This document shows positions 19,931 through 56,348 of a stretch of DNA of 64,000 nt, piece after piece. Origin of the DNA: Daucus carota subsp. sativus. Lineage: Eukaryota > Streptophyta > Magnoliopsida > Apiales > Apiaceae. Both the position numbers and the translations under genes were made by a program. The notes beneath the pieces are model-generated. The model did not search any database, had not been told where the DNA came from, and was given only the letters and a program-made list of their open reading frames with translations. The stretch is taken from contig NC_030387.2 of the NCBI RefSeq assembly GCF_001625215.2, positions 5,422,501 through 5,486,500 on the forward strand. Direction: 5' to 3'. Numbering within the stretch: position 1 is the stretch's first letter; each line of letters starts with the position of its first letter.

Positions 19931-20330
19931 CTTAGACACGATCCATTAAAATGGCCGCGTCACTTCAATTTAGGGTAAAACGTGAATTCCTGACACGTTT
20001 TGGTATGTTTATAAAACACAGCTTAAATAAAACGCAAGTTCTCCTTACGTTTACAGTTAAAAATATTTATTTATTTATTAGATAAACGTCACACGCATGT
20101 GTGTTTCCATGAAGACGGGTGTTAAACTGGCGTTTCCATCATTGAAACGTTAGTTAAACTCACGTTTATTCTTTTTTCATGGAAAGCAAAGCATACTACA
20201 TACTGCTACCTGTTCCTTTTAAAAGCCTAAAACGTGACTTCATGTCTCATTTTTAGTTTTTTTACAAAATGCAGTTTTAAGTTTGATTTTAGAGTGACGG
20301 TGTGGCGTTTTTTTAGATCGTGACAACTAA
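19931..20330. mobile_element. 400-bp TIR element carrying six AAACG-N13-CGTTT sites
   Basis: The ends are imperfect inverted repeats: CTTAGACACGATCC...GGCCGCGTCACTT on the left and, inverted, TTAGTTGTCACGATCT...CGCCACACCGTCACT on the right. Between them lie six inverted-repeat sites whose CG dinucleotides are exactly 13 bases apart: 19980/19998, 20030/20052, 20084/20106, 20113/20135, 20145/20167, 20230/20252 (outer limits). Three have perfect arms and three have a single arm change, two of them of CG-to-TG/CA type. There is no coding sequence. This is a non-autonomous DNA element of uncertain superfamily; a MULE-like origin is my inference. Confidence 0.5.
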
Positions 20331-21227
20331 AACATTCAGTGTCAAAATCATGACACTGAAAGCCTTTTCTCAATAATATGGGTCTCTCAAAAAATCCTGT
20401 TAATTATATTTTAGACATGATCTTTCAGTCATCATCTAATCTTTCAGTCATCATCTAAATCTAAATTTATGCCCGTCAAATTGAACTTATATAACCTAAG
20501 ACCAAACCTTATACTAAATATTATATTTTATTTATGACATATAACATACAAATTTAAATTATTTTTTAATATTTAACTTAAAATATTTAAAATACCTTTT
20601 AGAACCATAATATTATAACATACAAATATGTTCCTAATTGTACTATTTATATTTTTAATTTATATAATTATAATACTGTTTAATATATTGAGTGCAAAAA
20701 TGTTATTTTATTTTAAACTAAATTTATAAAATTCTAATATAATAAGATGTGTTTTAATTATAACAATTTTTTATTTTATAAAGTTTACTTTAAAATATTG
20801 AAATAAATATAAAGATGTTATAATATTATCATTAAATATTTTTTTTATTAAATTTGTAATTTTGTTTCTCTAATATAGAACAAAATTAGTTAATTTTATT
20901 TAATATTATATTTTTAAATAAAAATAATAATATTGAAAATATAATTAATGATTATAGCGAATACTAGAGAATTAATCCTTACATGTTTAATTAAACTATA
21001 ACTAATGATATTTTAGCTAACAAGTGATTCGTTTATAATCAGATTTATAAGATTGTATAGTGCAAATTGTGTGTTAGAATTGTTGTATCTTTAGTTTTAA
21101 TTATTGTGTTTCTTTTGAGAAAGTGTCATAGTTAATGGTTTTTTGATCGTATAATGCGTTTTTGTTTATCGTTAATTCATGATTGTGTTATTTTGATCAC
21201 TTTGTTTTGGTAGCTGGTATATCTTTG
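20331..21227. other. AT-rich intergenic spacer
   Basis: Very AT-rich, without exons. The only structure noticed is a short tandem duplication of ATCTTTCAGTCATCATCTA near 20420-20460. Confidence 0.5.
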
Positions 21228-22515
21228 AGAAAATGCCCAGAACAACATATTCTGCTAGTCAATCTGCCTGAAATGTCATTTGTCAATATTTATGCCCAAA
21301 ATAACCAATAGTTCACGCATATTCTAAATGCGTCTACAAACATCAAGTCAATACTGATCAATCCATATTAATCGTAGTCCCTTTTTTTATGAAGATTCAA
21401 TATATGCCTGCAAACAACGAAGAAAGGCCACAATATTATAATTTAGATTTAATAAAATAATTATGATAATGTAAATTAGAGTTAAGTTCCATGTAATCCA
21501 CATATTTACTGTAGTACCGTAGACCACGTATGTTCTGCAACTATAGAATGACATAAAAACATTGCAAAATGTATGAAATTTGTTATTTTGTGAAATACAT
21601 TCTATAAATATCACTATTTCATGAAAAATATTGAAAATCATTTATGTTCGACAAGTAGAACACATATGTTCTATAATATGTACATATGTTCTGCAAACTT
21701 AACATGTTTTGCAGAATAATGTGTTTTTCACTATTTAACTTATAGAATGTTTAGGATTGTCAAAATTTTTAACAACATAATGATGTTTATAGAACATGAT
21801 TTGCAAAATAACACCATTTTGCAATGTTTTTATTCCATTCTAAAGTTGCAGAACATACGTGGTCTGCGGTACTACAGTAAATATGTGGACTACATGGAAC
21901 TTTGTTCATGTAAATTAATAGGAGTTAATATTTTGGGGTTCATATTTGGGTTTTAAAATGTTTAATTTATACTTGAAATTAAATTGACTAACGGTTAGGG
22001 TTTAGGATGGAAATCTTAGACCCTAAACCCTCGAGCCTAAACCTAATTAATTCGAGACTTCAGGGCCGTGACGCCCTAAAGCCGAGTAACCAGTTTAATA
22101 AATTAATAATTGAAACGTAAATTAACAGTCGTTAATATATTAGGATTCATATTTGAGTTTTAAAATAATTAATTTATACTTAAATAACATTTTAGGGTTG
22201 AATAGAGACACCAGAGAAGAGCTCCAAAAGTGGAACTTTATAATTTGGATTCGCATTCCGAGGATGCATATACTGCCAGATTTGTTTACCCCACGCAAGC
22301 GCTGTATGCGTGGCTGATTTGGCATCAACGATATACTTATAGGAATGAATAGATTTAAAAAGGAAAAGATTAAAAAATGAAAGGTGGTTAATACACGCAA
22401 CCTTCGTATGCGTATGTCAAGGTGCGCATGTCATGCATGCGCGTAACTCTGGTTATTTTTGGCACCATTCCCGGTTTTTGTTATTTTGGACATGTTTAAG
22501 TGATAATTGGTTATC
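21228..22515. mobile_element. non-autonomous element with inverted ends and ACGCA-N9-TGCGT sites
   Basis: The left end has ATGCCCAGAACAACA, then TATGCCCAAAATAACCAA followed by ACGCAT. The right end, read inverted, has ATGTCCAAAATAACAAA, then GTGCCAAAAATAACCAG followed by ACGCGCAT. So the two ends mirror each other over about 90 bp. Five palindromic sites lie inside: 21315-21333, 22251-22269, 22291-22313, 22395-22413, 22424-22442. A separate foldback MITE (21479-21907) sits within. No coding sequence. The CCAAAATAACC theme recurs upstream of the PMD gene at 43245, which suggests kinship. Confidence 0.45.
21479..21907. mobile_element. foldback MULE-type MITE with 10-bp TSD
   Basis: A 429-bp element whose two halves are inverted copies. 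The outer 85 bp match closely (tracts CCACATATTTACTGTAGTAC and CCACGTATGTTCTGCAACT), and weaker pairing continues inward. It is flanked by a perfect ATGTAAATTA duplication (21469-21478, 21908-21917). The duplication length and long terminal repeats fit Mutator-like elements. It is nested inside the 21228-22515 element. Confidence 0.75.
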
Positions 22516-23491
22516 TATGTCTTTCACCCTATATCTTTTGGGTTTGATTCTTACTTTATTTCATCTCTTTATTTTCTTTTTTTCCGCGAATTTTTGTCTT
22601 TCATCGAGATTTTTTTCCCGTCATTAAAATTTATTGACTAAATTTTTGGCACCATCTCCGCATGACCTTTGATGAGTCAGTGGACTTTTTTAAATGAAAA
22701 CTCTCCTTTCTTTCTACTTCCGCGGATTTTAATTTTTCATTCTGGTATTTTTTTCGTATATCAAATTTTTTATATAATTTTTTTTTGGACATTTCGACTT
22801 GCCATCTTCTAGTTAGATGAAATATTTTTTATACAAAAGAAATTCTTCTTATATTTTCGGTATTATATTTCGATACCGCTTAGGTGAAAGTCTTATGACA
22901 AAAAAATAGATAAATTATTTACAGTATTAAATAGATATATCAAATCAAGGTGTAATTTTGATATCCATAATTCATGCATGGATATTTGTCTTCCTAGGAA
23001 ACAGATACAGATAGCGGAAAGAGTCTTGGTGTCTGTTTTTATTGTTTATCTTCAAATTCATACTCACCCTGCCCCTATTATTCTGTTGAAATTTTTGACT
23101 CCATTTTTCCCAAAACTCTCATCTTTCTCTGTCATAAATCTTTTATTTCTTTTGGTAAGTGCATAAGTCTTTTACTATTTGCTGCTCAGATTTGCATGCA
23201 ATCTTAGATATGTATTTAAAGCCTACATTTTTACCAAAACAGTCTTATCTCTACTTTGATTTCTTTTAAAAACCAGAATCATCTTCTCATCTCTGTGTCC
23301 TCTGATCTGATTTCAGCCTAGCCCATTTTTCAGATGCTAGTTTTTCTCCCTAATCTAGGTTTTTCTTTATAGAATATTGAGCTAGCACTGTTCTGTGGGT
23401 TTTTTTTTGCTTGTTGCACAAGGTGTTTGATCTTTTTCTTTTACTTGGTTCTTAAATTTTTGGGAGATCAATACAAAAGACATTTGGAATT
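22516..23491. promoter_or_regulatory. upstream region of the ZAT-like gene
   Basis: Pyrimidine-rich leader sequence in the last 500 bp fits a 5' UTR. A possible 5' UTR intron donor (TTTTGGTAAGTGC) lies at about 23150. No other gene is seen. Confidence 0.35.
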
Positions 23492-24793
23492 ATGAAGGAG
23501 TTTGGATCTTTGGATGGCCGGATTTCCAAGAAGATGTCGAGAGCTGTTGATTCGAGTTCTGGTGCATCAGAAGCAAGAGTCTGCAAGCAATGTGGTAAAG
23601 GGTTTCAATCACTCAAGGCATTGTGTGGTCATATGGCTTGTCATTCTGAGAAAGGGAGGGTTTTGAGGGAGTACAGATGTTACTGGAAGAGTGAAAAGTC
23701 TGAGCCAGTCGATGATCGGTTTGATTTGGAGGAGAATCCCACGAGGCGAACAAGATCCAGAGCCGAGAGGTACAAGAAAACTGTTGATGAGACTTTTGAT
23801 TATGGGAATGATAATAATTCTTCGTCTGTTTGTGATATTGAAGACACCGAAGATGTTGCTGCGTGTTTGATGATGTTGTCCAGGGATTCTAGGAAATGGA
23901 GTGGTGTCAATTCGATTGTGAAATCTTCAGATAATCAGTCGATGGTTTTTGAGACTAAATCATCTTCGGTTGAGATGAAGAACCCTAGAGATGATGGTAC
24001 CTACTTAGCTGATGAGATTCCTCAGAGGAAGAAAGTTGTCAGTAGGAAGCTGAAGTCTAGTGGTTTGGTTACAGAGAGTGTTTCTGCTTCTGGTTATGTG
24101 AGAAAAGCGGATTCTGACATATCAATTGAAGAGCTTTTTAATCATGGTGGATATAAAGATGCTGAATTGTCAACATTTTACAACAGGGTAAAACATTATA
24201 AAACCGATGAGAGTAAGGGTTTGAAGGGAAATGAGTACGATGATGTTGGTATAAGTCGAAAGCTACTGAAACTGGACTCAAAGAAAAGAGCTAGAGATCG
24301 GTATGATGGTGTAGAACCAGATAAGAAAGTTCACAGCAGAAAAAAATATGAGTGTGTAAACTGCAACAGAAGCTTTGATTCATTCCAAGCACTTGGAGGA
24401 CATAGACCATGCCACAAAAAGGCTGATCCTTCCATTCAGTATGAGTACGACAGTGGTGACAACAGCCTGGAGAACGACATAACTCCCATCTCCACACCCA
24501 TTCGGAAGCTTGGTCAGCGTTTTGATGACAAGAAACCAGTTTCCAGAGATTTTCCAGTTGCTGCAAAAAAGAAAGACAGAGCAAAGAAATCTAAGGCACA
24601 TCAATGTCCATTTTGTTCCAAAATTTTCAAGTCTGGTCAGGCTTTAGGTAGTCACAAAAGAACTCATTCCACGTATGATCCTCCTGAAGACTTTGGCAGT
24701 TCACCTCCAACTGCACGTAGTCTAATTGATCTTAATCTTCCAGCTCCCGAAGTGGATGGTGAGTTTTATGACGACAACCAGTTCAATAACTAA
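23492..24793 (+). CDS. ZAT-type C2H2 zinc-finger repressor
   Basis: A single-exon 433-residue nuclear protein with three plant-type C2H2 fingers: CKQCGKGFQSLKALCGHMAC (C31, C34, H47, H51), CVNCNRSFDSFQALGGH (C288, C291, H304, H308) and CPFCSKIFKSGQALGSHKRTH (C372, C375, H388, H392). The first finger has ALCGH where the plant consensus is QALGGH. The C-terminal DLNLPAP (about 413-419) is an EAR repression motif that recruits TOPLESS-type corepressors. Basic Lys/Arg-rich stretches before the second and third fingers could serve nuclear import. The layout fits the ZAT1/4/9 group. Intronless coding is normal for the family. It is probably stress-related by analogy, which I cannot show from sequence. 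Confidence 0.88.
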   Translation: MKEFGSLDGRISKKMSRAVDSSSGASEARVCKQCGKGFQSLKALCGHMACHSEKGRVLREYRCYWKSEKSEPVDDRFDLEENPTRRTRSRAERYKKTVDETFDYGNDNNSSSVCDIEDTEDVAACLMMLSRDSRKWSGVNSIVKSSDNQSMVFETKSSSVEMKNPRDDGTYLADEIPQRKKVVSRKLKSSGLVTESVSASGYVRKADSDISIEELFNHGGYKDAELSTFYNRVKHYKTDESKGLKGNEYDDVGISRKLLKLDSKKRARDRYDGVEPDKKVHSRKKYECVNCNRSFDSFQALGGHRPCHKKADPSIQYEYDSGDNSLENDITPISTPIRKLGQRFDDKKPVSRDFPVAAKKKDRAKKSKAHQCPFCSKIFKSGQALGSHKRTHSTYDPPEDFGSSPPTARSLIDLNLPAPEVDGEFYDDNQFNN

Positions 24794-26249
24794 AATTGAA
24801 TCAGGCATGAGTTGCTTGTCAGCATAGTTGGTTGACGGTTCCTACCCGGAGAACAATCATCTGATAACTTGTCTCTTGACATGCACTCATGAGTTCTGCT
24901 ACAACCAAGGGAGATTAAGAAGGCAATAATAAGCAACTGTTGCTTATGTTAACGGTTTGCCAATTTTTCCTTTTCTATTCGTTTTTTTTAGAATATGTTT
25001 ACATGTTTTCAAGTCCATTAATCATTTTTGAACTGAAACCTGTGGTATGACATTCAGATTTCTTGTTGTGCTCTTAATGCACTGCTATGGTTTGTATTTA
25101 ATGTATTTTTACTTGCTATCTATAAGGACCCAAAAAATGATTATTTTTGTGTTAAGAGAAAACTTCATAGATGTTTGGCTGAGAGTGAACTGTGATTCTA
25201 CACCTGCAAAAATCTGTATTTACTGTAAATGTTTACAAACTAGATAATCTTTACAAGAATTCAGTAGGGAAGCAAAGGTACATATTTTTCATCTCCTCTG
25301 ATCATTAATATTATGAGTTTGATGAACACGTAAACAATGTTGGAAACCTTTCTGCAGGTTTACAGTAGCTACAGAAAAAAGGAAACCTCTCGAACTAAGA
25401 AAACTCTTTTTTCTGGGTCTGTTATACATTTCACGCATCTTATTGACCGAACTAATCAACCAATTTCCATGCATCTACCAATTTTCAGAATAGTTCTGTT
25501 CCGGTCTATCTTCTTTAGCCTCCTTAAATGCCCAGTCATATGCCTACCAATTGCTTTAGATACATTACTCTCATCAGTAAAGAGGTTCTCATGTAATCTA
25601 CACTTCTGCATACCCATTTTCTTTTCTGTGATAAACTTTAACGAACTTAATATGAAAAACGTTGCACAATTTGGCGGGGTTCTGCAAAGGATTGAATAAT
25701 TATGAATATCCTGATCGAATCATTCCATGTACCTCTAGCCTCATCTCTTTACTTCCAGGACAATATATGTGAAATTTTGTAGGCATACCACATGGTTTCC
25801 CTCTAACTGGCCCTTGCCCATTTTCAGTACACTTTCAGCATCATTTTGTGGGTGCGTGAATAATCAGAGTCTGATCAGTGGTTCACTACTGTCGCTTTAA
25901 AGCTAGTGCGTGTATGCCAATCTTAAGCACCTACATCGTAAGCTGCCACTGGTCTGTCACAGTCACCTGAAGAGCATTACAACATACTCAGCTGACTAGT
26001 TGCACATTTACCTTGTTTCCTTTTGAAATACGAAGATTTCCAGATTTTGAAAGATTAGTTGTGTCTAACCAACCCTTAGCTTCATCTCCTAGAACTTTAA
26101 AAGGCACGGCATATGGAACCCTGGAAGGTAGGAACTTGAAAGAAAAGGCTGCTTTGTCAAACCAAAAAAGGATGAACTTTCCATCTTTGACTGATGCTGC
26201 AGCAACTACTAATCAAGAAGTCATAACTCTACTTTCAGCTCGCCAGTTG

Positions 26250-26296
26250 CATCAGAGAATTTGACAATGTCTCCAACATTGTCAAATTCTCTGATG
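26250..26296. repeat. perfect 21-bp inverted repeat, 5-nt loop
   Basis: Left arm 26250-26270 (CATCAGAGAATTTGACAATG then T), loop CTCCA, right arm 26276-26296, with no mismatch. The identity stops abruptly outside the arms. Confidence 0.85.
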
Positions 26297-27566
26297 TTTG
26301 AAGATATCTCTTGGAAAACATTGAAGAAATCGACCCCGACAAAAGTTCTCTAAAGACGTTGCAATAACATAGATTAATTATCTAGGAAATTTGCAAAATC
26401 AAATCAAGAGATAATATAGTTTCATCTCTAGAAAGAGATAATATCATAATCGTAACTAAAGTAATAAGCCTCAATAAGAGTTCATTTTTTTTGTTTGGAT
26501 TCGGTAAATTAACATGCACATAATTCGGTGAAGGCTCACCCCTGCTTCTTACCGAGAGAAGTATATCCACTAAACTACGATGCTAGGAATCCAACCACTG
26601 ATTCAAGGGACAACTGGAACGTACCAAAGTTCACAGGTTCTAGTTGTAGTTCTTGAAATGGAACAATATTTATCATAATCAAGGGGACTATAATAATGTT
26701 ATATGGAACCAAAGTTCCCTCTTATTTACAAATATTAGATGGGTACTGGTCCCAGACATATGATCGCCAAGAAGGGGTTAAGTAACATATAGTTTCCCCG
26801 TTTAACGATTAAAAAACGTTAGGCCTGTTAAAATTTTGTTATAATCCTGGGCGGGACCAGGACTCATATTAGATATAGAACCATAAACACTAATTTGCTG
26901 GACCAAGCAGAACAGCTGGTAAAGCTATCACTCCAATTTTACACAAATGAACTCAAACCAAAAGGAGAACATACTACCTGAATTGAAGACTGGAGAGGCT
27001 GTTCCAGGTCTTGTTGTAAACATTAATTTTCAGTACCCCTTGATCAAACTAGAACTTCTGGCGACATAACAAAAACTAATGAGTAGTCTTTTAAGAATTG
27101 TAAAGAGGACACCATTTCAACAAATAATTGTTTCAAGGACTTGATTTAAAAATCATTTTTATTTAAGGACTTAGATTAAAATTTTATATAGTCTAAGGAT
27201 GTTTAAATTGATTTTCCCATTTACAAATCGATCATTATATGTATTTTTTCTCGATGATTCATGATTGTTACAAACCGGCAAATTATATAATTATAATTAA
27301 TAAAATGTCCTGACAAAAAAAATTAAAAAAAGTTATAATTGTAAAAAAAAAAAGAAAATTAGGTTCGAGTACACTCTTTATCTCAATTGAATTCTGTAAG
27401 ATATATAATTTTATTTATCTGGTAGATGGTACGAAAACAATGAGACAATATAATTAAAATGTGGCTCCATTTTTTTTGACTTATTTTAGTTCTATTTTTT
27501 GTTGTGTCCTTTTATAGACTTAAGTTGGGGAGTTGTTACGAGAATAAAGGACAAACTTTTACAGGC

Positions 27567-27732
27567 AGAAAGAAAAATAAAACAACTTCATAAAAATAAA
27601 GAATACAATATCAAATATAGCTCCACACTTTAAATAATAAAAAAAACAAGGAGAAAGAAAAATAAAACAACTTCATAAAAACAAAGAATACAATATCAAA
27701 TATAGCCCCACTCTTCAGATAATAAAAAATTA
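27567..27732. repeat. 85-bp tandem duplication
   Basis: Two copies, about 27567-27646 and 27652-27732, sharing AGAAAGAAAAATAAAACAAC and CAATATCAAATATAGC with a handful of differences. Confidence 0.7.
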
Positions 27733-28560
27733 TTATAAAAAATCATAACTTTTTTATGCAATGTGAATTTTTAAAAGAGATTTTCTATATTAAATCAGCC
27801 ATTTAAATTTAAATCAAAAATATATTATGTAGTTTCCTTGAACTTGATCAAAATACACTTGATTACTCATACTTGAGTTTATTTACAATTGACACTCTTG
27901 AAAAAAAAAATCAGGACAAATTTCGTTCGTTAATTAAATTTGTAACTAAATCATATAATTTATGATTTTACCTAAAATTATATTTACAATTCAGATTTAT
28001 ATTTAGGAAAATATTAAATTATTTTAATTTAAATTTACTTGCATAATTTGATTGATTAACTAAAGAGATGATTTAATTGTAATCTTTTTAAGAGATGATT
28101 ATTATGTAATCCTTGAGCACAATTGGATGCTCAGACCACCTTTAAGAATATTTTTAAACAAATACTCAAATTATAAGACTATAAGGCATATTAGTCCAAA
28201 AAAAAGTATTTAATCTTTACAAAAAAATGAATATAAGTTATTTTATGTAATTTTCATAACCTTAATTCCTAGTGAATATTTCAATTAATAAAATTGATAA
28301 ACTCAAGCAATCACGATGATCCTTGATCATTATAAATTGATAGCTGGAAATTGTAGGATCAGAATTATAAAAAAATCTTCATAAGAAAAAATTAAAAACA
28401 CATAGATGCCTAAGGAAATATTTATATAAACTTCTTCTTATAATTAAATTTTGTTTAAAGAGCGTTCCAAAAAAAAAAAAAAATTTGTTTAAAGTATAAT
28501 TATATGGATCTAGGACAGGATAATAGAAAGAAAATTTAGTGTTTGATACAGTTTTTACCA

Positions 28561-42169: not shown

Positions 42170-42401
42170 CCCGTGTGCGAAGCACGGGCCAGATTGCTAG
42201 TTATATTAATCATGCCATCAAAAATTGTCGATTGAACTAAAAAATATTTTAAAAAATATTAGCTGGGGTTAATTAAAAAATAGTTATAATAAGAGTGATA
42301 AAAATGAACAGCTAACGAGTTGCATTTAAAAATATATATATTTTTAAAACTTAATTAGTTTTGAAAATTAGTTATTAATATAATTGCTAATATTATATTC
42401 G

Positions 42402-42736: not shown

Positions 42737-42922
42737 TATCAATTTAAACTTCCAAACAGTTATCAAATTATTTATCTATATGCAGATGATAGCTCATTTG
42801 GTTGGTGTTTTTTTTTTTTTTAAATGAAAATAAATCTCAGCGGGTAGCTCCGGCGAGATCTTGACTGAAGAGTTCCTTTCATTAAAAAAATTTATCATCT
42901 AACCATCGCACATACAGAAAAA

Positions 42923-43104
42923 AGGCCCTTAATAACCATATTTTTAGTGTTAATGCCCATAATAACCGAATTTGATAAAATGGCCCATAATAACCATTAG
43001 AGACGCAGACTAAGTAGCGTTTATGTTTAATAGTAAGACGCTACGTCGTGTAGCGTTTTACTCTTTTTTAATAAAGATGAAAACGCTACACGCTGTAGCG
43101 TTTT
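42923..43104. promoter_or_regulatory. PMD-1 upstream block: CCCATAATAACC repeats and ACGCTAC-N5-GTAGCGT palindromes
   Basis: GGCCCTTAATAACCAT, ATGCCCATAATAACCGA and TGGCCCATAATAACCAT follow one another at 42923-42996. They are followed by two palindromes: ACGCTAC-N5-GTAGCGT at 43038-43056, and an 11-bp-arm version (AAAACGCTACA, 3-nt loop) at 43080-43104. The two share the same ACGCTAC-N5-GTAGCGT core. A half-site GTAGCGT is at 43014-43020. A TATA-like run TTTATATATATAC follows at about 43108. Confidence 0.6.
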
Positions 43105-43244
43105 CCCTTTATATATATACTGCACTTTAACCTCAACGGCTAACCATCGAGTGTAGTGTTTATAAAGAGGTGAAGCAGAGGTGAAGCAGCTGATATATAC
43201 CATCGAGTGAGGCGAGATTATTCAACGAGTTGAAGCAACTACCC

Positions 43245-46200
43245 ATGGATTTCAGTGTATGTTCTTTAATCTTTGAGCGATTTTAATGTCATAGCTGTGT
43301 TAATCTTCACTGTTTTGATATGCTTGCTATGTGCTTGATTAAATTCCTGTGTTAAACTTCTGTGTTAGTTACTCTAACTTTCAGCTCACATAGGCTAGAT
43401 TAATTGTTGATGGATGTGTATTTTTAAGGTTTCATATGATTGCCTTCTCCCCTTTAAACCTCCAGCCACCGCAACCTTCTCCCCTTGAAACCCCATCTTG
43501 CTTACCACACTATAAGCAGCAGAATGGATGTGATGGTATTTATATGTGCATAACACTTGCATGATTAGAGGAAGTTTCCCAGCATATTATAAGCTGGCAA
43601 TGACCCACACATAAAATCAAGACGGTCTCCCCTCCAGGCTATAGGCAGACAAGAGCTAATACAAACCCATTGCCCCACAAACAATGCAGCGCAATTGACA
43701 TTAGGATTGATACAATTAAAATCATGAGCCGAGAGCTTGAAGTTCTGAGCGATGTCGAAACAAGTGTCCCCTTTCCTCACTCCGAACACCGTATCACATG
43801 TTGGCCCTGCAGGAACTGGAACTGCTCCTCCAAAAATGCATGACAATATAAAACAGTTATTGTTCTCACACAAAATAATAAAATTAATAATATATCCAGG
43901 GGCAAAACAGTTGTTTATATTAAAATGTTATAAATTAGTAGTGATCTTACTGCGGTAACCTGGTTTGCTCTGAGCTACTGCGATTCTTAAAACTGATATT
44001 ACGAAACACACTGTCTTGTAGGGGAAAAAGAGCGAGGGCTAGGGTAATACGAAACACACAAATATACATAATATTACGGTTCTTAAAACTGATATTGACT
44101 AGAATCCCGTAAATTTACATGTATCAAACACACTGTCTTGTAGTGAGGAGGGCTTTGAAATTCAGTATACATTCTTGTGGTTTTGCTTGGAGAGGTTGGT
44201 AAGGCTAGGTGAGTAAAATGGACACATGGGCTGTTGAGTAATGGTCAAGGAGTAATATGAGCCGAGCGTTTGTACTTGTTGCATTTTAGCGGCCTAGGAT
44301 TGGTTAGCTATTTGGAACTTATTTCCGCGCACACATACATTGCTTTTGTTATTAGCATGATTAATATTGATAGGATATGACTCTCTTTATTATGTATTAT
44401 TATATGTCTTTGGCTGGCTAATTAATTATGAAAATTGACATTAGCATATTAAGACATGATTTATCGGTGAATAATATACATGCTATTTTATCATATTATT
44501 GGTTATTGGATTTACATGATACTATTATATACCATTCTGCGGGAATCGTAGTATTTATATTGTGTTAATTTAGTTAGTTTCTCTCTAAAGTTAGTATGAT
44601 GTGCTGACTTTGTATTTCCTTGTTTTTGTTCACAGGCTATTATTAGAGACCAGGGACCTCGTGATCCTAGCCTTCTTCACCTACAGGCCACTCATAGGTC
44701 TCGTTCTGTCTGGAGAACTGGTGCTGCGCCCTTGCAGTATTTCAGGCGTCGTGATGCCAACCAGTCTGATTTGAACATTGATGTTCGATTGATCCCCATT
44801 CTGCAGGCAGCCGATTTTTATGGGGTAGCTCGTGTATCCACTCTTCAGCTTGATTGGAGTTTGCTTGGTGCTCTGGTAGAGAGATGGCGACCAGAGACAC
44901 ATTCATTCCACCTGCCGATGGGAGAGTGTACTATTACACTGCAGGATGTTGGTGTCGTGCTTGGGTTACCCATTGACGGAGAGCCCGTTATGTGTCCTGT
45001 AGGCCCTCCACCTGGACAGAGATGGGAGACCATCGTTGGTGAGATATTTGGACAGATTCCTCCACCCGAGGCTTTCAATAACTCGAGGCTACGGCTCACA
45101 TGGGTAGAGAGTCTCACTCCAGCGAGATTACATGATGATGCAGGCGTTGAGGAGATCAGGCTTCACGCCAAGTGTTACTTGCTACAGTTGTTTGGGGGGT
45201 CACTGTTCACCGACCATTCTGGTGGACTTATACACTCCTCGTGGGTTCATTTTGTTCGTGACCTGGAGGCGCTCGGAGGTTATGCATGGGGTCCAGCTGT
45301 TCTAGCTCGTCTATACAGGGAGCTTTGCAATGGTTGCAAAGCGAGTATTAAGGAGGTAGCTGGATGCCTTCTATTACTGCAGCTATGGGCATGGGAGAGG
45401 TTGCCCACTCTTGCCCCTGTTCGGACCACTGTTCCATTAGAGGATGTTGCTTTTTGGGAGCATCAGCTTCCAGGACCACATGGAGCCAGGTACATAGTAA
45501 CTGTGTTTTTACTGGTTTGTACATTTCAAGTTGTGAATTGTCTTTTTAAATTGACTAATGTGTTTTTTTGTATTCCTATGATGTCTATAGGTGGCTTGTT
45601 GGACATTCATTCGTTGAGAGTGATGGAAGCACTGTGACTACGTCTCGGGCGGCATTGGATGCGCTTGCTCCACATGAGTTTATTTGGGAGCCTTATGCTG
45701 GGATTCTTGATACACTGCCAGACTATTGTTTAGCCGGCCGTCATCTCTGACGCTTTCGCGGCCCCATGATATGTGTTTACATAGTCGAGCCACATCAGCC
45801 GGACAGAGTTGCTAGACAGTTTGGCATGATACAGCGTATTCCGGATCAGCCACACTACTCCCATGAGCATCACGTTATGACGCTGAGGGGCCAGAAGGTC
45901 TTGGATTATGCAGTCGTACATCAGCCGAGTATGATACACTTGCAGCATCGTCTGGAGCATATTTGGACTGATGACTTGATTGATGGTCATGCTACAGTCC
46001 CAGAGTACATGGATTGGTACTTGCCTCGGACTGTGAGGTTCATTAGTCAGTTGGGTGCACTGCATACCCACCTGGTAAGTATTTTTTGACTATTATATCT
46101 GCACTTTCTGTGATATGTGTCGTGTGTTTTCGTTATCTGTAGTTGGGGTATTAGTTGTATTAGTCGTCATGCTTTATTTGATGGGTTCTAGTAGTTGATA

Positions 46201-48905: not shown

Positions 48906-49501
48906 TACAAGGATTGAATCGAATCAATATAAGTAGAGAAATAGAGTAAGATTAGGGCTGGGAAACTAATTAAAATAAGATCTGTATCGAATTTCGATAT
49001 GAAGCGTACCTATAAATTTGTGATGTGGATCTGAAACGTGAAGAGTTTGAGATGTGAATGGTGAAAGGGATGAGGGGGAGAAGAGGCACGTGAGAGTGGG
49101 GAGGAATCACGTGAGAGTGGCGGCACTTCTCCTTCTTCTCATGCCGAGGAGAGAGAGAGAGAGAGAGATGAGTAGCGAGGGAGAAACGATTGATTAGTTA
49201 GATAATTTGATTCGTAACTTATTATGAGACGAATTTGGTGGTTTATTTTTTGTTTGCTTCACTTTTCCCCAATTTTGGATCTACTCACTTCTCCTTGTTG
49301 AGAGTTACAATTATCCCTCATTGTACAAGTCCTTTTTCCTTTCTTAATTTTTCAAACCCTGTTTAGTCTTTCTTTCCCCTGTTTATAAGTCTTTGATTTG
49401 GGCCGGACTTGTTGAGTTTTTCTCCTTTGACTGGGTTGAGGCCCAACATGTCCCCCACAATTGTAGCGTATTCATCTCTTTTTTCTTGAATCTTGTATTT
49501 T
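48906..49501. other. upstream region of the membrane protein gene
   Basis: Promoter and 5' UTR sequence for the minus-strand gene, with a GA repeat. From about 49200 it turns T-rich and leads into the short frame at 49502. No other gene is seen. Confidence 0.4.
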
Positions 49502-49743
49502 ATGTCTCATTCGCGAATGAATCAGTCTTCCTCTTCTCAAACGATCATTGACACTATCGGCAACACTGTCTTCGATGAACTCGCCCCTTTGCAGTCCGTT
49601 CAAGTCCTGCATTCTTCTTCTCACAATATTGCTACTTTGGAGAGTGATTACAATGCTCTCGAGCCAGTTGATCCTGAGATCTTGGAGATGTCTGAGCGTA
49701 CCCCTTTAAGGATGGAGTCTTCCACGGCTCCTTCAAATTACTG
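49502..49743 (+). other. short Ser-rich open frame, probably cut by the MULE locus
   Basis: An ATG-started frame (SHSRMNQSSSSQTIIDTIGN, FDELAPLQSVQVL, SERTPLRMESSTAPS) that loses sense where the GGCTCCTTCAAATT repeat begins at 49726. It could be the first exon of an old gene or element interrupted by the locus to its right. I do not recognise it. Confidence 0.25.
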
Positions 49744-49780
49744 ACCACCCGGAACACATTCTTTACAAAACTAACCACCC
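49726..49780 (+). repeat. left copy of the GGCTCCTTCAAAT repeat (candidate MULE end)
   Basis: GGCTCCTTCAAATTACTGAC, then CACCC, then CTTTACAAAACTAACCACC. It is matched by a direct copy at 54561-54614. Another CACAAAACTAACCACC follows at 49794. Starting with GG, it is a plausible MULE terminus. The inverse right end is not in the window. Confidence 0.5.
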
Positions 49781-49825
49781 AAATTTTCGTTTCACAAAAC
49801 TAACCACCCTAATTCAACACCCCTC

Positions 49826-49930
49826 GGGCGAACACAGAAGAAAACATTTTTTTCAGCCGAGATTCTGCGAAGGGCGAACAGGAAGAACTCAGGCAACTGT
49901 GTTCGCCCCTGCCACGGGCGAACATAGTTG
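49826..49930. promoter_or_regulatory. TGTTCGCCC-N7-GGGCGAACA palindrome and half-sites
   Basis: Full palindrome at 49900-49924 (spacer CTGCCAC), extended by CAACT/AGTTG outside (49894-49930). Half-sites GGGCGAACA are at 49826-49834 and 49872-49880. It lies just upstream of the PMD-2 transcription unit. Confidence 0.7.
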
Positions 49931-50424
49931 TGCACATCTGACGTGTCCGGCCCAGTCAGGGGCGGCCACGTGTCCAACATAACCCTTAAACCCACCCCCC
50001 CTGTTTCTTCTTCACTTCGCCGCAGCACCCATTTTCAGATTTTACACCACAAGCTTTGTATTTCAAGATTTTATATACACACAAACCACAAGCTGCAATT
50101 TGTAGAAGAAAGGGAGAAAAGAGGGAAAAAGGAGCTTGCTTTGCTACTTTCACCGGATCAATTCATCAATTTCACCCATTTTCGAGGTTTTTCCACCATT
50201 CTCAATCTGATTAAAATGCATGCATGTATTTTTATAAATTTGATAATGATTGATCTTAGTTGCTAGTAGATACAAATTATATGACAAGCTTGATTAGTAA
50301 TTTGTTTGATAATTTATAATGGGTTTTGTTAGTTGGTATTTGTTAGTGATAATTTTAGTTTAGATTAGTAGTTGGTGATGATTGTTGTTGATTAGTAGTG
50401 CTAGTGATAATTTTAGTTTAGATT

Positions 50425-51352
50425 AGTAGTTGGTGATGATTGTTGTATTATTTACGTTAGGAGTAGATTAAATATAATCAATTTAATTTTAGCTTTTATT
50501 GAATTAAATTAAATTAAATTAAATCGAATTAAATCGAATTAAATTAAATTAAATTAAATCGAATTAAATGAAATTAAATTAAATCGAAGTAAAGTAAACT
50601 TGACACCATTAAATTAAATAGGTTAGTTGGCCTTGGTTAGCTTTAAGCATGGGATAAGTAGTTGGTGATGATTGTTGTATTATTTACGTTAGGAGTAGAT
50701 TAAATATAATAAATTTAATTTTAGCTTTAATTGAATTAAATTAAATTAAATTAAATCGAATTAAATCGAATTAAATTAAATTAAATTAAATCGAATTAAA
50801 TGAAATTAAATTAAATCGAAGTAAAGTAAACTTGACACCATTAAATTAAATAGGTTAGTTGGCCTTGGTTAGCTTTAAGCATGGGATTAGTAGTTGGTGA
50901 TGATTGTTGTATTATTTACGTTAGGAGTAGATTAAATATAATAAATTTAATTTTAGCTTTTATTGAATTAAATTAAATTAAATTAAATCGAATTAAATCG
51001 AATTAAATTAAATTAAATTAAATCGAATTAAATGAAATTAAATTAAATCGAAGTAAAGTAAACTTGACACCATTAAATTAAATAGGTTAGTTGGCCTTGG
51101 TTAGCTTTAAGCATGGGATTAGTAGTTGGTGATGATTGTTGTATTATTTACGTTAGGAGTAGATTAAATATAATAAATTTAATTTTAGCTTTTATTGAAT
51201 TAAATTAAATTAAATTAAATCGAATTAAATCGAATTAAATTAAATTAAATTAAATCGAATTAAATGAAATTAAATTAAATCGAAGTAAAGTAAACTTGAC
51301 ACCATTAAATTAAATAGGTTAGTTGGCCTTGGTTAGCTTTAATCATGGGTTA
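50425..51352. repeat. 4 x 232-bp tandem array
   Basis: Units begin at 50425, 50657, 50889 and 51121, each starting AGTAGTTGGTGATGATTGTT. Each unit contains runs of AATTAAATTAAATCG and the tract GGTTAGTTGGCCTTGGTTAG. Copies differ by only a few bases. A partial unit precedes the array near 50360. The array is in the presumed 5' UTR intron of PMD-2, whose coding exon begins right after a TTTTGCAG acceptor. Confidence 0.9.
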
Positions 51353-51796
51353 GTTCGATAAGAAAGACTTTGAATAAAACTCAACGACTCCCTTAAATTT
51401 AGGAAATACGTTTTTTTGATTAGAATAAAAATTTAAATTATACAATGTTATATTATTCCAATAAATAAAAAAAATAAGATTTGTAAAAATAGTTAGAGAT
51501 AATTATTTCGAATTTAAAATTAAGTAATAATGTAAAATAATAAATATAGTACAATCTTTTGGATTACAATTAATATTATAAATATAATCAACATAATTTG
51601 AGTTTTTATAAATTTAATTAAATTAAATTAATTCGAATTATATCACAAGATTTGTAAAATTAGTTAGACATAATTACAATTAAAATTAAAATCACAATGT
51701 TATATTATTACAATTAAAATGAAAATTTTTTCGAATATTGGATTTAATGAAACAATTTCAAATTTAATAACAAATATTTTGAATTTAATTTTGCAG

Positions 51797-54343
51797 ATGG
51801 ATGTCGGTCGTTCTGGTCCCGGACCTTTAGACGGGAGTTTGTTGACATTACAGTCTGTGCACAGGTCTCAGGTTGTGTGGGACAACATAGAGGTAAACTC
51901 CTTCTTTAGTGCAATTTTTTTTACATTTGTATGAGTCTGTAGCCTATAGGGACTAATATTTTGTGCACTACAATTATTTCAGCCACCCCCTGATTTCAGA
52001 TTGAGGACAAATTTTGGGGAGTATTGGAAGCAAGTTCGAGCCCACAGACCGCATCAGATGATCATGGATGCAATCAGGGATTTAGGATTTGATTGCATAT
52101 TTAGGCTGGGACAGTTCAAGCACGACAGGGGTTTGATTACAGCCTTTATCGAGAGATGGCGTGGAGAGACGCACACCTTCCACCTGCCGTTCGGAGAGGC
52201 CACTATCACTCTTGAGGATGTTCATCACATTCTCGGGTTACCCACTGAGGGTGATCCACTCATCCTCCGTGGAGCGAGTACCAGCGTGGAGGAAAGGCGC
52301 GTGCTAGTACGCGAATTTCTTGGGCTATTACCAGAAGCCAAGGACGATGTTAACCGAGGTGGTTTAAAGATCAAATGGCTTGTGGATAACTTCGGGTCTT
52401 GTGAGCGGTTGGAGCAGTTGGATCCAGAGGATATAGGTTATGGTGTACAGCTTACCTACCATATTCGGGCGCACCTACTATGCGTTATTGGATCATTGTT
52501 CCCCCACAGCAGCGGGAACCGCGTGCAGCTTGACCTTCTATGGTTAATGAGGGACATGGACCAGCTGCGTCGGTATAGCTGGGGTAGTGCTGTTCTTGGC
52601 TTCCTATACCAGAAGCTATGTTCTTCTAGCCGGGATAACTGTACTGATTTCTGTGGCTACGCCACATTGGTACAGGTAATACTAAACCAACCACAACTTT
52701 CTTTCTCGTCTTTATTGTTGCATTATTTATTCATCATGTGCACTTATACTAACCTTGCCGCTAGGTGTGGATTTACGAGCGCTTTCCGTCACTAGCGCCT
52801 AGGCACAGGGGTCAACCCTTGTTCGAGTACCCGCTGGCGCTGAGGTATGTTGTCACTCCTTCTGTTGATTAACTTCAATTCATATTTGTTGCATGTATAA
52901 CCTCTGACCACTTATGCCAACTTCCACTGTAGGTGGAAGGCGCCACTTAGGCGTTGTCAGGTGCCGCATGCGCAGAGCCGCATGACACAGTATGAGTTGG
53001 ATGCGTTGACACCCCGACAGTTTCGATGGAGGCCATATGCTGATTTACCTGCAGAGCATCACCCGGAGGCCACTGTGTACTTGCGTTGGACGGCTCCCGC
53101 CCCCATGATGTACATGTCCTACGTCGAGTGGTGCTACACGGACAGGGTGACGAGGCAGTTTGGTTTTATGCAGGGTGTACCATATTCCTCTCCCTACCCT
53201 AATCATCAGGAGCTGCACAACCACTACAACGAGCAGGTTGATTGGATGTACGCGAGGGAGCCATTTGTTGATCTTTGGGATACGCGCATGGAGCGTGCCC
53301 TCGCATCTCCTCCACTTATGCATGGCGAGGGTTGCACTGCCTCATACCTGCCATGGTTCCACAGGGTGACACGTCGAATCATCATTAACCCCTTACACTG
53401 GCCACAGCAGGAGGGTGCCTTCCAGGGAACACAGCTCTCGACACAGGAACTGGTAAATATACAGCTTAAATATACATGCTTAAATATACATGCTTAAATA
53501 TACATGTTCTCAGCTTGTTTTGTACACTGTTCTGACTTAAATATACATGTTTGTAAACAGGAGGAGCAGTTATCCGCTATGCAGCGTGCCATTGACCCTT
53601 ATGCTCCTGATTTGGGTCTGGCAAACCATATTTTACAGGATATGGTTACTCGTGTACAGCGTCGACCTACGGAACAGGCCCCTGCCAGACCTAGGGCACG
53701 GGCTCCTGCAGGGCGTAGGGGACGACCACCAGTCACACCGGTAGTGCCCGAAGAGGGCACTTACTACACCCATGTGGGTAGCTCACACCTTGCAGGCACC
53801 TCACATTCTGCAGGTCATGATGGAGCAGGTACTTTTGAGGCTGGTGGTTGGTCTCCATTCATTCAGCCTTCTACATCTGAGGGGGTTCCATGGCCCCAAA
53901 GGAGCAGATTAGGGGATGATGAGGCACAGGACGATGAGGGTCCGTCACAGGATCACTTGTCAGAGTCATATGTATATCGTCCTGACATGTCATTCTTAGA
54001 GGATCACACACCTCCCCCATTCACCCAGGAGCCGTCCTTTGGGAGCAGTACATACAGATTCGGGAGTCCACCTGTCACGTTCACGCCGATGATGTCCACC
54101 AGCGGCCAGGGTTTTACCACACCTTTACCCGCTTTTGCTTCATTTGCGGGGGATAGTAGCCCCTGGGCGTACGCACCTGTGCGTCCACCGAGAGCAGCAG
54201 CACAGCCGTCGGAGGTTGAGGATGAGTCTGACCATGAGGAGCCATCCGAGCATGAGCAGAGACAGCAGCCACCTAGAGCTGCGAAGGGGAAGGGTCGTAG
54301 ATGTCACACTGGAAGTCACTTCTTCGGGCATACGAAGAAGTAG
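51797..54343 (+). CDS. plant mobile domain (PMD) protein 2, intact
   Basis: Five exons: 51797-51892, 51983-52675, 52765-52844, 52933-53452, 53561-54343. They sum to 2172 nt, an unbroken 723-residue protein. The PMD runs from about residue 40 to 420: FRLGQFKHDRGLITAFIERW, THTFHLPFGEATITLEDVHH, ILGLPTEGDPL, LWLMRDMDQLRRYSWGSAVL, then WIYERFPSLAP, RVTRQFGFMQGVP. The tail is proline/serine-rich with acidic patches (SEVEDESDHEEPSEHEQRQQ) and a basic end (AAKGKGRRCHTGSHFFGHTKK). Long clean frame, tandem arrays and adjacent transposase suggest it belongs to a MULE rather than being a host MAIN-type gene. The exact role is unknown: transposition, nuclear targeting or relief of silencing are all possible. 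It is related to PMD-1, but the two have diverged a lot. Confidence 0.82.
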
Positions 54344-54560
54344 GCTTTTTGGCTTCCCCTCGTATGTACTTTGTTTATGTGTATGCACTTTTATTATGCA
54401 TTTGATAATGCATTATGTTTATCTTTATGTACTTTTATTCGGGTAGAACGGTTTATGTACTTTTATTATGTTTATGTTTTTTGTTCACTCATATTGTTGT
54501 ATAATGTTAGCACTTTCCGTTTACATGATAACATAACAAATGACATAACATAATAAATGA

Positions 54561-54614
54561 GGCTCCTTCAAATTTCTAACCACCCTAAACAACTTCTTTA
54601 CAAAACTAACCACC
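54561..54614 (+). repeat. second GGCTCCTTCAAAT repeat
   Basis: A direct copy of 49726-49780, about 200 bp after the PMD-2 stop codon, with the same CTTTACAAAACTAACCACC part. It could mark the start of a second element unit. Confidence 0.6.
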
Positions 54615-54627
54615 TTTTTTTAAAATA

Positions 54628-54785
54628 CTAGCTTATAGCCCGTGCAAGGCACGAGAGCTTTTTAATTATTTAGAAATTTTTTAAATATATTTTAAATGGT
54701 GTGGAAAAATTTAATTTATAAATAATAAATTAAAATTTTCAATTAAATAAAATTTGAAAAAAAAATTGAATTTTTTTTAAAATAC
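54628..54785 (-). mobile_element. Helitron-like 3' terminus on the minus strand
   Basis: Read on the minus strand: hairpin CTCGTGC-CTT-GCACGGG, then CTATAAG, then CTAG followed by T, a standard Helitron 3' end. TTTTTTAAAATACTAG occurs on both sides (54616-54631 and 54771-54787), so the inserted piece may be only about 157 bp. Its 5' end is not identifiable. Confidence 0.35.
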
Positions 54786-54787
54786 TA

Positions 54788-55198
54788 GCAAAATAATCAC
54801 GATAGAAAAAACAGATAATCGAGCGTATAGAACAGGTAGTTGCGTGTTAAACATCCAAAACGGTGAGTCACAAGATCCAAATGGGCAAGTCAAGTAGTAT
54901 GATAATTGAGTTTGTGGTAATTAAAAAAGCGAGGAGTGTAAACGCAAGTGATACGAGGCAAGCCCTTGTATGTTCGCCCGACTGGGGGGCGAACATGAAT
55001 TTTATTGTTTGTCATTGCTAACAAAGCCACACAAACATAGTACGCATCAACATACCACTTAAAATTCCACTAAAACATACGAGTGGGCACTTACAAACGT
55101 AACACGAGCAAACAACAATTGGAACAGTTATAAAGATAGATAGACAGATGTGCATAAGTTAAACAGCATTGGAAGCCAAACACATAACATGAATAACA
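54788..55198. promoter_or_regulatory. spacer with second TTCGCCC palindrome
   Basis: ATGTTCGCCC-N7-GGGCGAACAT at 54970-54996 (spacer GACTGGG). The rest should include the 3' UTR of the minus-strand GRF gene. No coding sequence is seen. Confidence 0.65.
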
Positions 55199-55522
55199 TC
55201 ACACATCCTCAGCATCCCATCGAGATCCATCACCTTTCATGGTCTTCCTCATTCTTCTTACTCTTTCGGCATGCTTCGTCTCCATTTCTGCCACTTCCGC
55301 TGCCTGCGACCATTTGAGGTCACTTATTTCCTCAGCAAGTTTGTTGATGACCACAGTTGAACGGTTGTCTAGTCGATCATCTAGCCATAGTAAGTAACCA
55401 CAACCAGTTGCGCCGTCAGGACATTGCAACATCCGTCTACCAACGTCGGGACCGTTGTCCCGACAAACCCTCTTAACAAGGGCTTTGTCACAGTAGCACT
55501 TATCGGCAGCAGCGGAATCCAT
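55199..55522 (-). CDS. small GRF-type zinc-finger protein
   Basis: A 107-residue single-exon protein. Residues 9-48 resemble a GRF zinc finger: CYCDK, then GRRMLQC, then C-GYLLWLDD, with three to four Cys and the G-R-x-hydrophobic-C and Y-x-x-W signature positions. The rest is a charged helix (EEISDLKWSQAAEVAEMETK). Small GRF proteins with a coiled-coil tail are common in plant repeats, and GRF fingers bind nucleic acid. The minus strand has a TATA-like TATAAATAAG at about 55570-55580. It sits between PMD-2 and the transposase, so it is probably an accessory gene of the same element. Confidence 0.65.
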   Translation of the reverse strand: MDSAAADKCYCDKALVKRVCRDNGPDVGRRMLQCPDGATGCGYLLWLDDRLDNRSTVVINKLAEEISDLKWSQAAEVAEMETKHAERVRRMRKTMKGDGSRWDAEDV

Positions 55523-55741
55523 AAATGATATAATGTGTTTGAGCTAGTGATGAAAGTGAGATGATGAGGGAGAACTTATTTATAGGCGAAAATTACATAG
55601 AGGTCACTTTAAAATATTAAAATGTAAATAACTTAATAAATAAGACTGAGTTCGCAAAGTAGGAAAGGACATGGACAATGTATTATTGATTAACATAATA
55701 AGAAAAACAACAGTACATGCACGTTGCCAGGACATCAACTT

Positions 55742-56170
55742 TTATCCCTTTTTTGAACAACCCTCCCCCATTTTTTTCCCCTTCACAGATTTAAGTTCTT
55801 CATCATGCCTCTCTCTAATCCTCTCCTTCGCAGCGTATTCTGCCGAGCTTTCTCTCAGCAAACCTATCCTTTCCTCATCCGTGATCTTTCCTTTCAAGAA
55901 GGCATCATTTATATCCCGGTCTTTTCTGTAGTGATATTCACGTAGCGGGCGACCGACTCCATGCAGAACTTCAATATGGGTCTCATCCTTAGTCGGCACC
56001 CAGTGTTTGCCCTGTCTCGCTTCTCGATACTCCAACAACCGCATCTCCGTAGCAAACTTCATCTTCTCCGCATCCCTTTCCATGGCAATTGAAACAAGTC
56101 TTCTCGTTTTTGTACAACTCCATTCTTCCATCCCGTCGTCAAGCTTTCTAGATTGTTTCTGCTTGTCCAT
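55742..56170 (-). CDS. accessory protein A of the MULE locus (unrecognised family)
   Basis: A 142-residue single-exon protein, charged and mostly helical, ending in Lys-rich KGKKMGEGCSKKG. I do not recognise the family. It contains EYREARQGKHWVPTKDE, which matches TRRARNGKDWVPTEQE in the 61889 gene and TTRRIRKG in the 63685 gene, so the three form one local family with an R-x-A-R-x-G-K-x-W-V-P-T motif. A TATA-like box TATATATAGTT (minus strand) lies at about 56230. The third TTCGCCC palindrome (56322-56348) lies upstream. Confidence 0.6.
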   Translation of the reverse strand: MDKQKQSRKLDDGMEEWSCTKTRRLVSIAMERDAEKMKFATEMRLLEYREARQGKHWVPTKDETHIEVLHGVGRPLREYHYRKDRDINDAFLKGKITDEERIGLLRESSAEYAAKERIRERHDEELKSVKGKKMGEGCSKKG

Positions 56171-56321
56171 GAGATGTTTTTAGTATGAGCAGATGAGAAG
56201 TTCGAGTATGTGTATGGCCTTAGTTCTAACTATATATAAACAAATTTACTCAATTATCACTTCAACTGATGACTAATCAATAAAATAATATCAATTCAAT
56301 ATTTACAAAACAACCCATTAT

Positions 56322-56348
56322 ATGTTCGCCCTCTCTTCGGGCGAACAT
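56322..56348. promoter_or_regulatory. third TTCGCCC palindrome
   Basis: ATGTTCGCCC-N7-GGGCGAACAT, spacer TCTCTTC. Arms identical to the 54970 copy, spacer length the same but sequence different. About 150 bp upstream of the 55742 gene. Confidence 0.75.

What the first reader, a model, noticed from the sequence alone, without database searches (positions are those of the whole stretch)
19977..56348. Four blocks of element-specific palindromes share one CG-N13-CG geometry
Seen directly: at least 14 short inverted repeats in four separate blocks. Arms differ per block (AAACG/CGTTT; ACGCA/TGCGT; ACGCTAC/GTAGCGT; TGTTCGCCC/GGGCGAACA), yet in every one the two CG dinucleotides are separated by exactly 13 bases. 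Several imperfect sites differ only by CG-to-TG or CG-to-CA. Two blocks are tied to PMD genes and two to gene-less elements. Known: VANC proteins of Arabidopsis VANDAL MULEs bind family-specific clustered short motifs and relieve silencing locally. Inference: these are recognition sites of a dimeric element-coded protein (accessory, PMD or transposase) with a fixed footprint and changing specificity, sensitive to CG methylation.
Basis: partly seen in the sequence, partly recalled or inferred. Interest (0 to 1): 0.87.

Follow-up and report, generated by a model that had tools for sequence, protein, structure and literature searches.

The report
Paired-CG binding sites in plant transposons
Four groups of short mirror-image DNA sites in or beside plant jumping genes all hold two CG pairs exactly 13 bases apart although their surrounding letters differ, which looks like the docking pattern of one family of two-part proteins that may switch on or mobilise these elements.

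Summary
The four blocks contain 14 CG-N13-CG places and all 14 are palindromic (at least 7 of 13 pairs); elsewhere in the window 8 of 49 are. For CG-bearing inverted repeats with arms of 5 or more, spacing 13 has 14 cases; no spacing from 0 to 30 reached 14 in 500 dinucleotide shuffles. Block by block, 13 is the commonest spacing in all four.

New here: block B is a 1,303-bp element without a long ORF, flanked by an exact 9-bp target-site duplication, as in Mutator-like elements (MULEs). Both ends of B and the left end of C carry three TGCCCAAAATAACC-like units 28 to 31 bp apart. The palindrome next to each end of B is 31 bp from the third unit. In C the palindromes stop about 7 bp before a TATA box of the PMD gene. 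So the blocks are not four independent inventions.

Best reading: units dock the transposase; palindromes are fast-changing sites of a dimeric element-coded regulator, like CACTA TNPA or VANDAL VANC sites. The binding protein and methylation sensitivity are untested. Block A could not be placed in a family. No host genome was held.

The parts
19978..20000 (.). A1 palindrome AAACG-N13-CGTTT
   Evidence: arm 8, 8/13 pairs
20030..20052 (.). A2 palindrome AAACG-N13-CGTTT
   Evidence: 8/13 pairs
20084..20106 (.). A3 decayed site, right CG now TG
   Evidence: 4/13 pairs, outer AAA/TTT intact
20113..20135 (.). A4 imperfect CG-N13-CG site
   Evidence: 8/13 pairs
20145..20167 (.). A5 palindrome AAACG-N13-CGTTT
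   Evidence: 10/13 pairs
20230..20252 (.). A6 decayed site, right CG now CA
   Evidence: 9/13 pairs
21218..21226 (+). Left target-site duplication TATATCTTT of element B
   Evidence: exact 9/9 match
21227..22529 (.). Element B, 1303-bp MULE-type element with no ORF of 120 aa or more
   Evidence: 9-bp duplication; termini GAGAAAATGCCC and, inverted, GGGTGAAAGACA
22530..22538 (+). Right target-site duplication TATATCTTT of element B
21234..21306 (+). B left end, three phased terminal units
   Evidence: spacing 31 and 28
22451..22522 (-). B right end, three phased terminal units
   Evidence: spacing 30 and 28
21315..21333 (.). B1 palindrome ACGCA-N9-TGCGT
   Evidence: centre 31 bp from the third left unit
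22293..22311 (.). B2 palindrome
22395..22413 (.). B3 palindrome
22424..22442 (.). B4 palindrome GCGCA-N9-TGCGC (both outer bases changed symmetrically)
   Evidence: centre 31 bp from the third right unit
42917..42995 (+). C left end with three phased units GGCCCTTAATAACC / TGCCCATAATAACC / GGCCCATAATAACC
   Evidence: spacing 30 and 28, highest phased-repeat score in the window
43003..43020 (.). C degenerate site, CG-N12-CG
   Evidence: read by eye
43038..43056 (.). C1 palindrome ACGCTAC-N5-GTAGCGT
   Evidence: 10/13 pairs
43081..43103 (.). C2 palindrome AAACGCTACA-N3-TGTAGCGTTT
   Evidence: 12/13 pairs
43110..43118 (+). TATA box after the C palindromes; ATG at 43245 read by eye
44636..45637 (+). 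PMD-coding exon of C
   Evidence: PF10536 E 9.6e-53
49733..49810 (+). D1 left end, three phased units ending in CTGACCACC or CTAACCACC
   Evidence: spacing 30 and 29; only weak likeness to the B/C unit model
49826..49834 (+). D lone half-site GGGCGAACA
49872..49880 (+). D lone half-site GGGCGAACA
49900..49924 (.). D palindrome TGTTCGCCC-N7-GGGCGAACA
49944..49968 (.). D imperfect palindrome TGTCCGGCC-N7-GGGCGGCCA
   Evidence: 10/13 pairs; half-sites 46, 44, 44 bp apart
51797..54343 (+). PMD gene of D (two ORF stretches carry the PMD)
   Evidence: E 5.3e-42 and 6.2e-16
54561..54614 (+). D2, second copy of the D end (two units)
54971..54995 (.). D palindrome
55199..55522 (-). Small GRF zinc-finger ORF with predicted long helix
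   Evidence: PF06839 E 1.6e-7; (low-confidence model)
55742..56170 (-). Small accessory-like ORF, TATA at 56238
56323..56347 (.). D palindrome, 85 bp upstream of the TATA of the accessory-like ORF
57924..60618 (-). MULE transposase in two ORFs
   Evidence: MULE PF10551 E 1.7e-19; MuDR DNA-binding PF03108 E 1e-9

Best explanation
The palindromes are recognition sites of a homodimeric, sequence-specific regulator made by these MULE-type elements or their autonomous relatives. Each subunit reads a CG-containing half-site; the CG pairs lie 15 bp apart centre to centre, about 1.4 turns of B-DNA, and the 13-base spacing is fixed by the dimer. Shown: the sites, their spacing, the freer spacers, their place beside phased terminal units in B and C, and a TATA box downstream of the C sites and of one D site. 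Inferred: the terminal units, which B and C share, bind the conserved transposase; the palindromes, whose arms differ by family, bind a faster-evolving accessory protein (GRF zinc-finger protein, 'WVPT' accessory or PMD protein). By occupying unmethylated CG sites it would keep the element's ends and promoters open, switch on (or autoregulate) its genes and help ready the ends for transposition, as TNPA does in CACTA elements and VANC in VANDALs.
For: Excess at spacing 13 over every other spacing. Arms 90-100% identical against spacers 10-46% within blocks (12 sites compared). Long half-sites are local: all 8 exact TGTTCGCCC half-sites of the window lie in D and 6 of 8 are paired at N13; 5 of 7 exact ACGCTAC half-sites lie in C. 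An element without a long ORF that has transposed (B, exact 9-bp duplication) keeps palindromes at both ends, the nearest one 31 bp from the third terminal unit at each end. Terminal units shared by B and C: with each of three ends left out in turn, the model of the other two scores it 30.2, 34.3 and 39.8, while no stretch outside these three ends exceeds 15.7 and none overlapping a training end at a shifted phase exceeds 18.1 (top 14 of each list). TATA boxes follow the C palindromes by about 7 bp and the 56323-56347 site by 85 bp. CG in every arm, and two CG-to-TG/CA variants in A.
Against: No binding, expression or methylation data. No other copies could be examined: no host genome is held and three scans of viral contigs found no relatives. 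Block A has no target-site duplication, its two ends do not align beyond shuffles (30, shuffle maximum 41), it does not align to C (28 and 25, shuffle maxima 47 and 41) and is not found by the unit model, so it may belong to another family. C's end aligns to B's left end beyond shuffles (64 against 41) but to B's right end only as well as the best shuffle (43 against 43). D1's units match the B/C model weakly: rank 13 and 7 in two of four models, outside the top 14 in the other two, and D1 has only a half-site next to its units. The promoter link is partial: of 7 gene-start regions scanned for a TATA box, 4 had one, and only 2 of these 4 have a palindrome close upstream; D1's PMD region had no TATA match, and the transposase start has neither (with site positions). 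No right end was found for C or D. C and D sites would also fold as hairpins. Neither small-protein model is reliable (pLDDT 71 and 56).
Confidence: 0.45

Rival explanations
1. The palindromes are bound by the MULE transposase itself, as part of a composite terminus (three units plus a dyad) that assembles the transposition complex.
For: In element B the nearest palindrome centre is 31 bp from the third unit at both ends. Element B, without a long ORF, keeps mainly what is needed in cis. A MULE transposase with a MuDR DNA-binding domain lies beside the D sites.
Against: Arms differ between B and C although their terminal units are alike; further palindromes lie away from the unit arrays found (54975, 56327), and the C sites and one D site lie upstream of TATA boxes.
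Confidence: 0.28
2. Host transcription factors bind the palindromes; the elements captured ready-made promoter sites.
For: C sites lie about 7 bp before a TATA box; one D site lies 85 bp upstream of another.
Against: One geometry with four different arm sequences is unusual for one host factor; sites also lie near both ends of element B, which has no long ORF.
Confidence: 0.14
3. The structure acts as nucleic acid: cruciform, hairpin RNA or small-RNA source.
For: Each of 10 sites folded (of 14) gives a hairpin as single-stranded DNA; the four C and D sites among them reach -10.4 to -12.2 kcal/mol with z -4.6 to -8.1.
Against: Arms and loops vary, so stability differs widely (-4.2 to -12.2; A and B sites -4.2 to -7.6); a hairpin has no need of CG at one fixed place.
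Confidence: 0.08
4. Chance or copying of one palindrome within each element.
For: Sites within a block share arms; A spacers (46%) and C flanks (55%) are more alike than random; limits of C and D were drawn around the sites; C alone is matched by 25 of 2000 shuffles at some spacing.
Against: 0 of 500 whole-window shuffles at any spacing; k=13 tops all four blocks; spacers 10-46% and flanks 28-55% identical, unlike recent copies.
Confidence: 0.05

Closest known systems
CACTA (En/Spm, Tgm) subterminal repeats bound by TNPA-type proteins
   Same: Family-specific, often inverted motifs just inside conserved termini, varying between elements while termini stay conserved; suggested methylation sensitivity (passages of PMC2613891).
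   Different: CACTA has CACTA termini and 3-bp duplications (same passages); here 9 bp and other termini. No fixed CG-N13-CG dyad appears in the passages seen.
VANDAL elements and VANC anti-silencing proteins (Arabidopsis)
   Same: MULE relatives with short family-specific motifs in non-coding regions and accessory genes (passages of PMC5735166, and PMC10398659).
   Different: VANC motifs YAGTATTAY and AGTTGTCC/AGTTGTAC are non-palindromic, lack CG and lie in tandem repeats; no DUF1985 or DUF287 match in the 11 distinct stretches scanned here.
MULEs carrying PMD genes
   Same: PMD beside a MULE transposase, also antisense with an unknown ORF as in MULE-Solanaceae_1 (table passage of PMC6446971). 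Anti-silencing by captured PMD has been suggested (passages of PMC5418596, and PMC8616336).
   Different: The passages seen describe no palindromic site next to the PMD gene.
MAIN/MAIL1 'DOWN' motif (Arabidopsis host PMD proteins)
   Same: A promoter motif tied to PMD proteins (passages of PMC7156037).
   Different: The motif letters do not appear in the passages seen (they are in a supplementary figure), so they could not be compared; recognition of the motif is only hypothesised there.

Membership tests
MULE superfamily (element B) | 9-bp target-site duplication | tested here: met
   TATATCTTT exact on both sides; the only exact 9-mer pair in the ranges searched
MULE superfamily (element B) | Terminal inverted repeats | tested here: inconclusive
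   10 of 20 terminal bases inverted-identical; unit arrays are inverted at the two ends
MULE superfamily (D complex) | MULE transposase with DNA-binding domain and SWIM zinc finger | tested here: met
   PF10551 E 1.7e-19, PF03108 E 1e-9, SWIM E 4.2e-4; that the D sites and this gene form one element is inferred
MULE superfamily (block A) | 9-bp duplication and matching ends | tested here: not met
   No duplication at the expected ends; ends no better than shuffles
MULE superfamily (block C) | Both ends and duplication | tested here: inconclusive
   Left end only; no right end with a matching duplication and terminus
VANDAL/VANC | VANC protein with DUF1985/DUF287 | tested here: not met
   No match in the 11 distinct stretches scanned; the window may not hold whole elements
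VANDAL/VANC | Loss of methylation at sites on VANC expression | not testable with these tools
   no methylome
CACTA/TNPA | CACTA termini and 3-bp duplication | tested here: not met
   element B starts GAGAAAATG and has a 9-bp duplication
Dimeric DNA-binding site | Inverted half-sites at fixed spacing with free spacer | tested here: met
Methylation-sensitive site | Binding blocked by CG methylation | not testable with these tools
   only two CG-to-TG/CA variants seen

The most novel reading that the evidence does not exclude
MULE-type elements of this plant carry a two-layer end code: slowly changing phased units read by the transposase, and fast-changing CG-N13-CG dyads read by a dimeric accessory protein (PMD or GRF type) of fixed footprint whose half-site specificity diversifies by family. 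This would make the element's PMD proteins sequence-specific anti-silencing factors that act on their own promoters, giving a DNA target to a domain of unknown function.
Probability: 0.2. Interest if true: 0.85.

Novelty: new variant of a known kind. Interest (0 to 1): 0.6.

Why it matters
How transposons escape silencing without waking the whole genome depends on family-specific pairs of protein and DNA site; TNPA and VANC are the examples met here. A constant dyad geometry with changing half-sites would be a natural series for watching such a pair co-evolve, and a testable target for PMD proteins, whose function is called unknown or undetermined in the passages seen.

Tried and rejected
Whole-genome test of the geometry: not possible, no genome held. 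Relatives by protein in viral contigs: three scans, none found. Right ends for C, D1 and D2 by duplication plus terminus: no convincing pair; the best 10-mer for C (one mismatch, at 44330) has no matching terminus. Block A as a MULE: suggested by eye from GAGAAAAGGC at 20371 (minus) and GGCC units, but not supported by duplication, alignment or unit model. A solved structure matching the PMD stretch of C: none. Structure models of the GRF and accessory ORFs: low confidence, show only helices; no fold search was run with them. Literature: 10 searches (one search found no paper, one search listed 20 of 26). None of the listed titles and abstract starts describes a CG-N13-CG palindrome or phased terminal units in MULEs; this is a limited open-access library, and of the listed papers I saw passages of eight only (PMC7156037, PMC5735166, PMC6446971, PMC10398659, PMC2613891, PMC7385966, PMC8616336, PMC5418596). 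The left arms printed for the D half-sites are shifted by one base; one search gives them correctly. The first four residues printed for PMD gene C come from a one-base slip (the ATG is at 43245); the rest of that frame is right.
Full report
What was checked. All CG-Nk-CG pairs with k from 0 to 30 were listed with the length of the complementary arm around them. With arms of 5 or more, k=13 has 14 cases while the other 30 spacings share 110. With 6 or more it is 10 against 47; with 7 or more, 8 against 26. In 500 dinucleotide shuffles, made in 1-kb pieces, no spacing reached 14, 10 or 8 respectively; the highest values were 10, 5 and 4. Shuffled per block, spacing 13 is the commonest in all four (3 in A, 4 in B, 2 in C, 3 in D). 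C alone is the weakest: 25 of 2000 shuffles reach its count of 2 at some spacing.

The sites. Fourteen places in the blocks have CG-N13-CG exactly, and all 14 are palindromic by at least 7 of 13 pairs; among the 49 such places elsewhere in the window, 8 are. In blocks A to D the arms of the sites compared are 100, 90, 100 and 100% identical, the spacers 46, 37, 20 and 10%, and the flanks 28, 29, 55 and 42%. That comparison used 12 sites; A3, A4, A6, the imperfect D site 49948 and the N12 site of C were left out, and the arms were chosen as the shared part, so the contrast is favoured. It is still what a dimer reading two half-sites would leave, more than what recent duplication would. Long half-sites are local: all 8 exact TGTTCGCCC half-sites of the window are in D, 6 of them paired at N13; 5 of 7 exact ACGCTAC half-sites are in C. 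The five-letter arm of A is too short for such a test once a mismatch is allowed. In D1 four half-sites (two lone, one in a perfect palindrome, one in an imperfect palindrome) are 46, 44 and 44 bp apart.

What they sit in. Block B is an element of 1,303 bp with an exact 9-bp target-site duplication, TATATCTTT, and no ORF of 120 aa or more. A nested inverted repeat lies inside it. Its two ends each carry three units like TGCCCAAAATAACC, at spacings 31 and 28 (left) and 30 and 28 (right); C begins with three units at 30 and 28 that give the best phased-repeat score of the window. A weight matrix built from two of these three ends scores the third at 30.2, 34.3 and 39.8; in the top 14 of each list no stretch outside the three ends exceeds 15.7, and shifted overlaps with training ends reach 18.1 at most. 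The test is strongest for C, since for either end of B the other end of the same element was in the training set. C's end aligns to the left end of B well beyond shuffles (64 against 41) but to the right end only as well as the best shuffle (43 against 43). D1 has its own array of three units at 30 and 29 bp, which resembles the B/C units only weakly. In B the palindrome next to each end is centred 31 bp from the start of the third unit; in C a degenerate N12 site is centred 29.5 bp away, and the first exact palindrome 65 bp away. So B and C are cousins, D perhaps, and the common geometry may be inherited and not reinvented. Block A is the exception: no duplication, no match to the units, and ends no more alike than shuffles.

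Genes. C and D carry plant mobile domain genes (PF10536, E 9.6e-53 in C, 5.3e-42 and 6.2e-16 in two stretches of D); D also has a MULE transposase (PF10551 E 1.7e-19, MuDR DNA-binding domain E 1e-9) on the other strand, a GRF zinc-finger ORF (E 1.6e-7) and small ORFs, two of which share a GK.WVPT stretch. The C palindromes end about 7 bp before a TATA box at 43110, with an ATG at 43245; the site at 56323-56347 lies 85 bp upstream of a TATA box for the small ORF 56170-55742. Against this, TATA boxes at 55584 and 62490 have no full palindrome close upstream, and the D1 PMD region and the transposase start gave no TATA match. D1's PMD ATG stands directly after a splice-acceptor-like GCAG, so its promoter could be far upstream, near the palindromes; this is inference.

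How it most likely works. Conserved units plus variable palindromes is the logic described for CACTA elements, where termini are conserved and subterminal motifs vary with their binding protein (passages of PMC2613891), and for VANC proteins (passages of PMC5735166). I therefore read the units as transposase docking sites and the palindromes as sites of a dimeric accessory regulator that keeps ends and promoters active. The transposase itself is the strongest rival, because the palindrome keeps its distance from the units at both ends of B. A hairpin role is unlikely but not excluded for C and D. CG in each arm makes methylation control attractive; the evidence is only that two of the six A sites have one CG turned to TG or CA, and that 10 of 17 CGs of A stand at site positions, which is partly circular because the sites were defined by their CG.

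Limits. One window of one plant; host not identified; no second copy of any element; no binding, expression or methylation data. C and D lack a right end, and their block limits were drawn by me. Recalled, not from a call: that such termini are typical of MULEs, beyond what the passages of PMC6446971 state, and the 10.5-bp helical repeat behind '1.4 turns'.

Noticed in passing
21484-21902: Inverted-repeat structure with 88-nt arms (94% complementary) nested inside element B.
   Followed up: no
43565-43927 (minus): ORF with a LysM-like look (recalled, not searched) lying inside the putative first intron of PMD gene C; perhaps a captured gene fragment.
   Followed up: no
50495-51300: Four copies of a roughly 232-bp AT-rich tandem repeat between the D1 end and its PMD gene (seen in the sequence; spacing).
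   Followed up: no
56544-57523: Three copies of a 300-bp stretch at 340-bp spacing (99-100% identical) between the small ORFs and the transposase stop.
   Followed up: no
60711-61482 and 62540-63427: Direct duplication 1.83-1.95 kb apart (pieces 94-99% identical) around small accessory genes on opposite strands.
   Followed up: partly
55199-55522 (minus): Small GRF zinc-finger ORF with a predicted long helix next to D palindromes; a candidate dimeric binder.
   Followed up: partly
850-4500: Stretches rich in CCGAACCCGATCC-like repeats with inverted arms.
   Followed up: no
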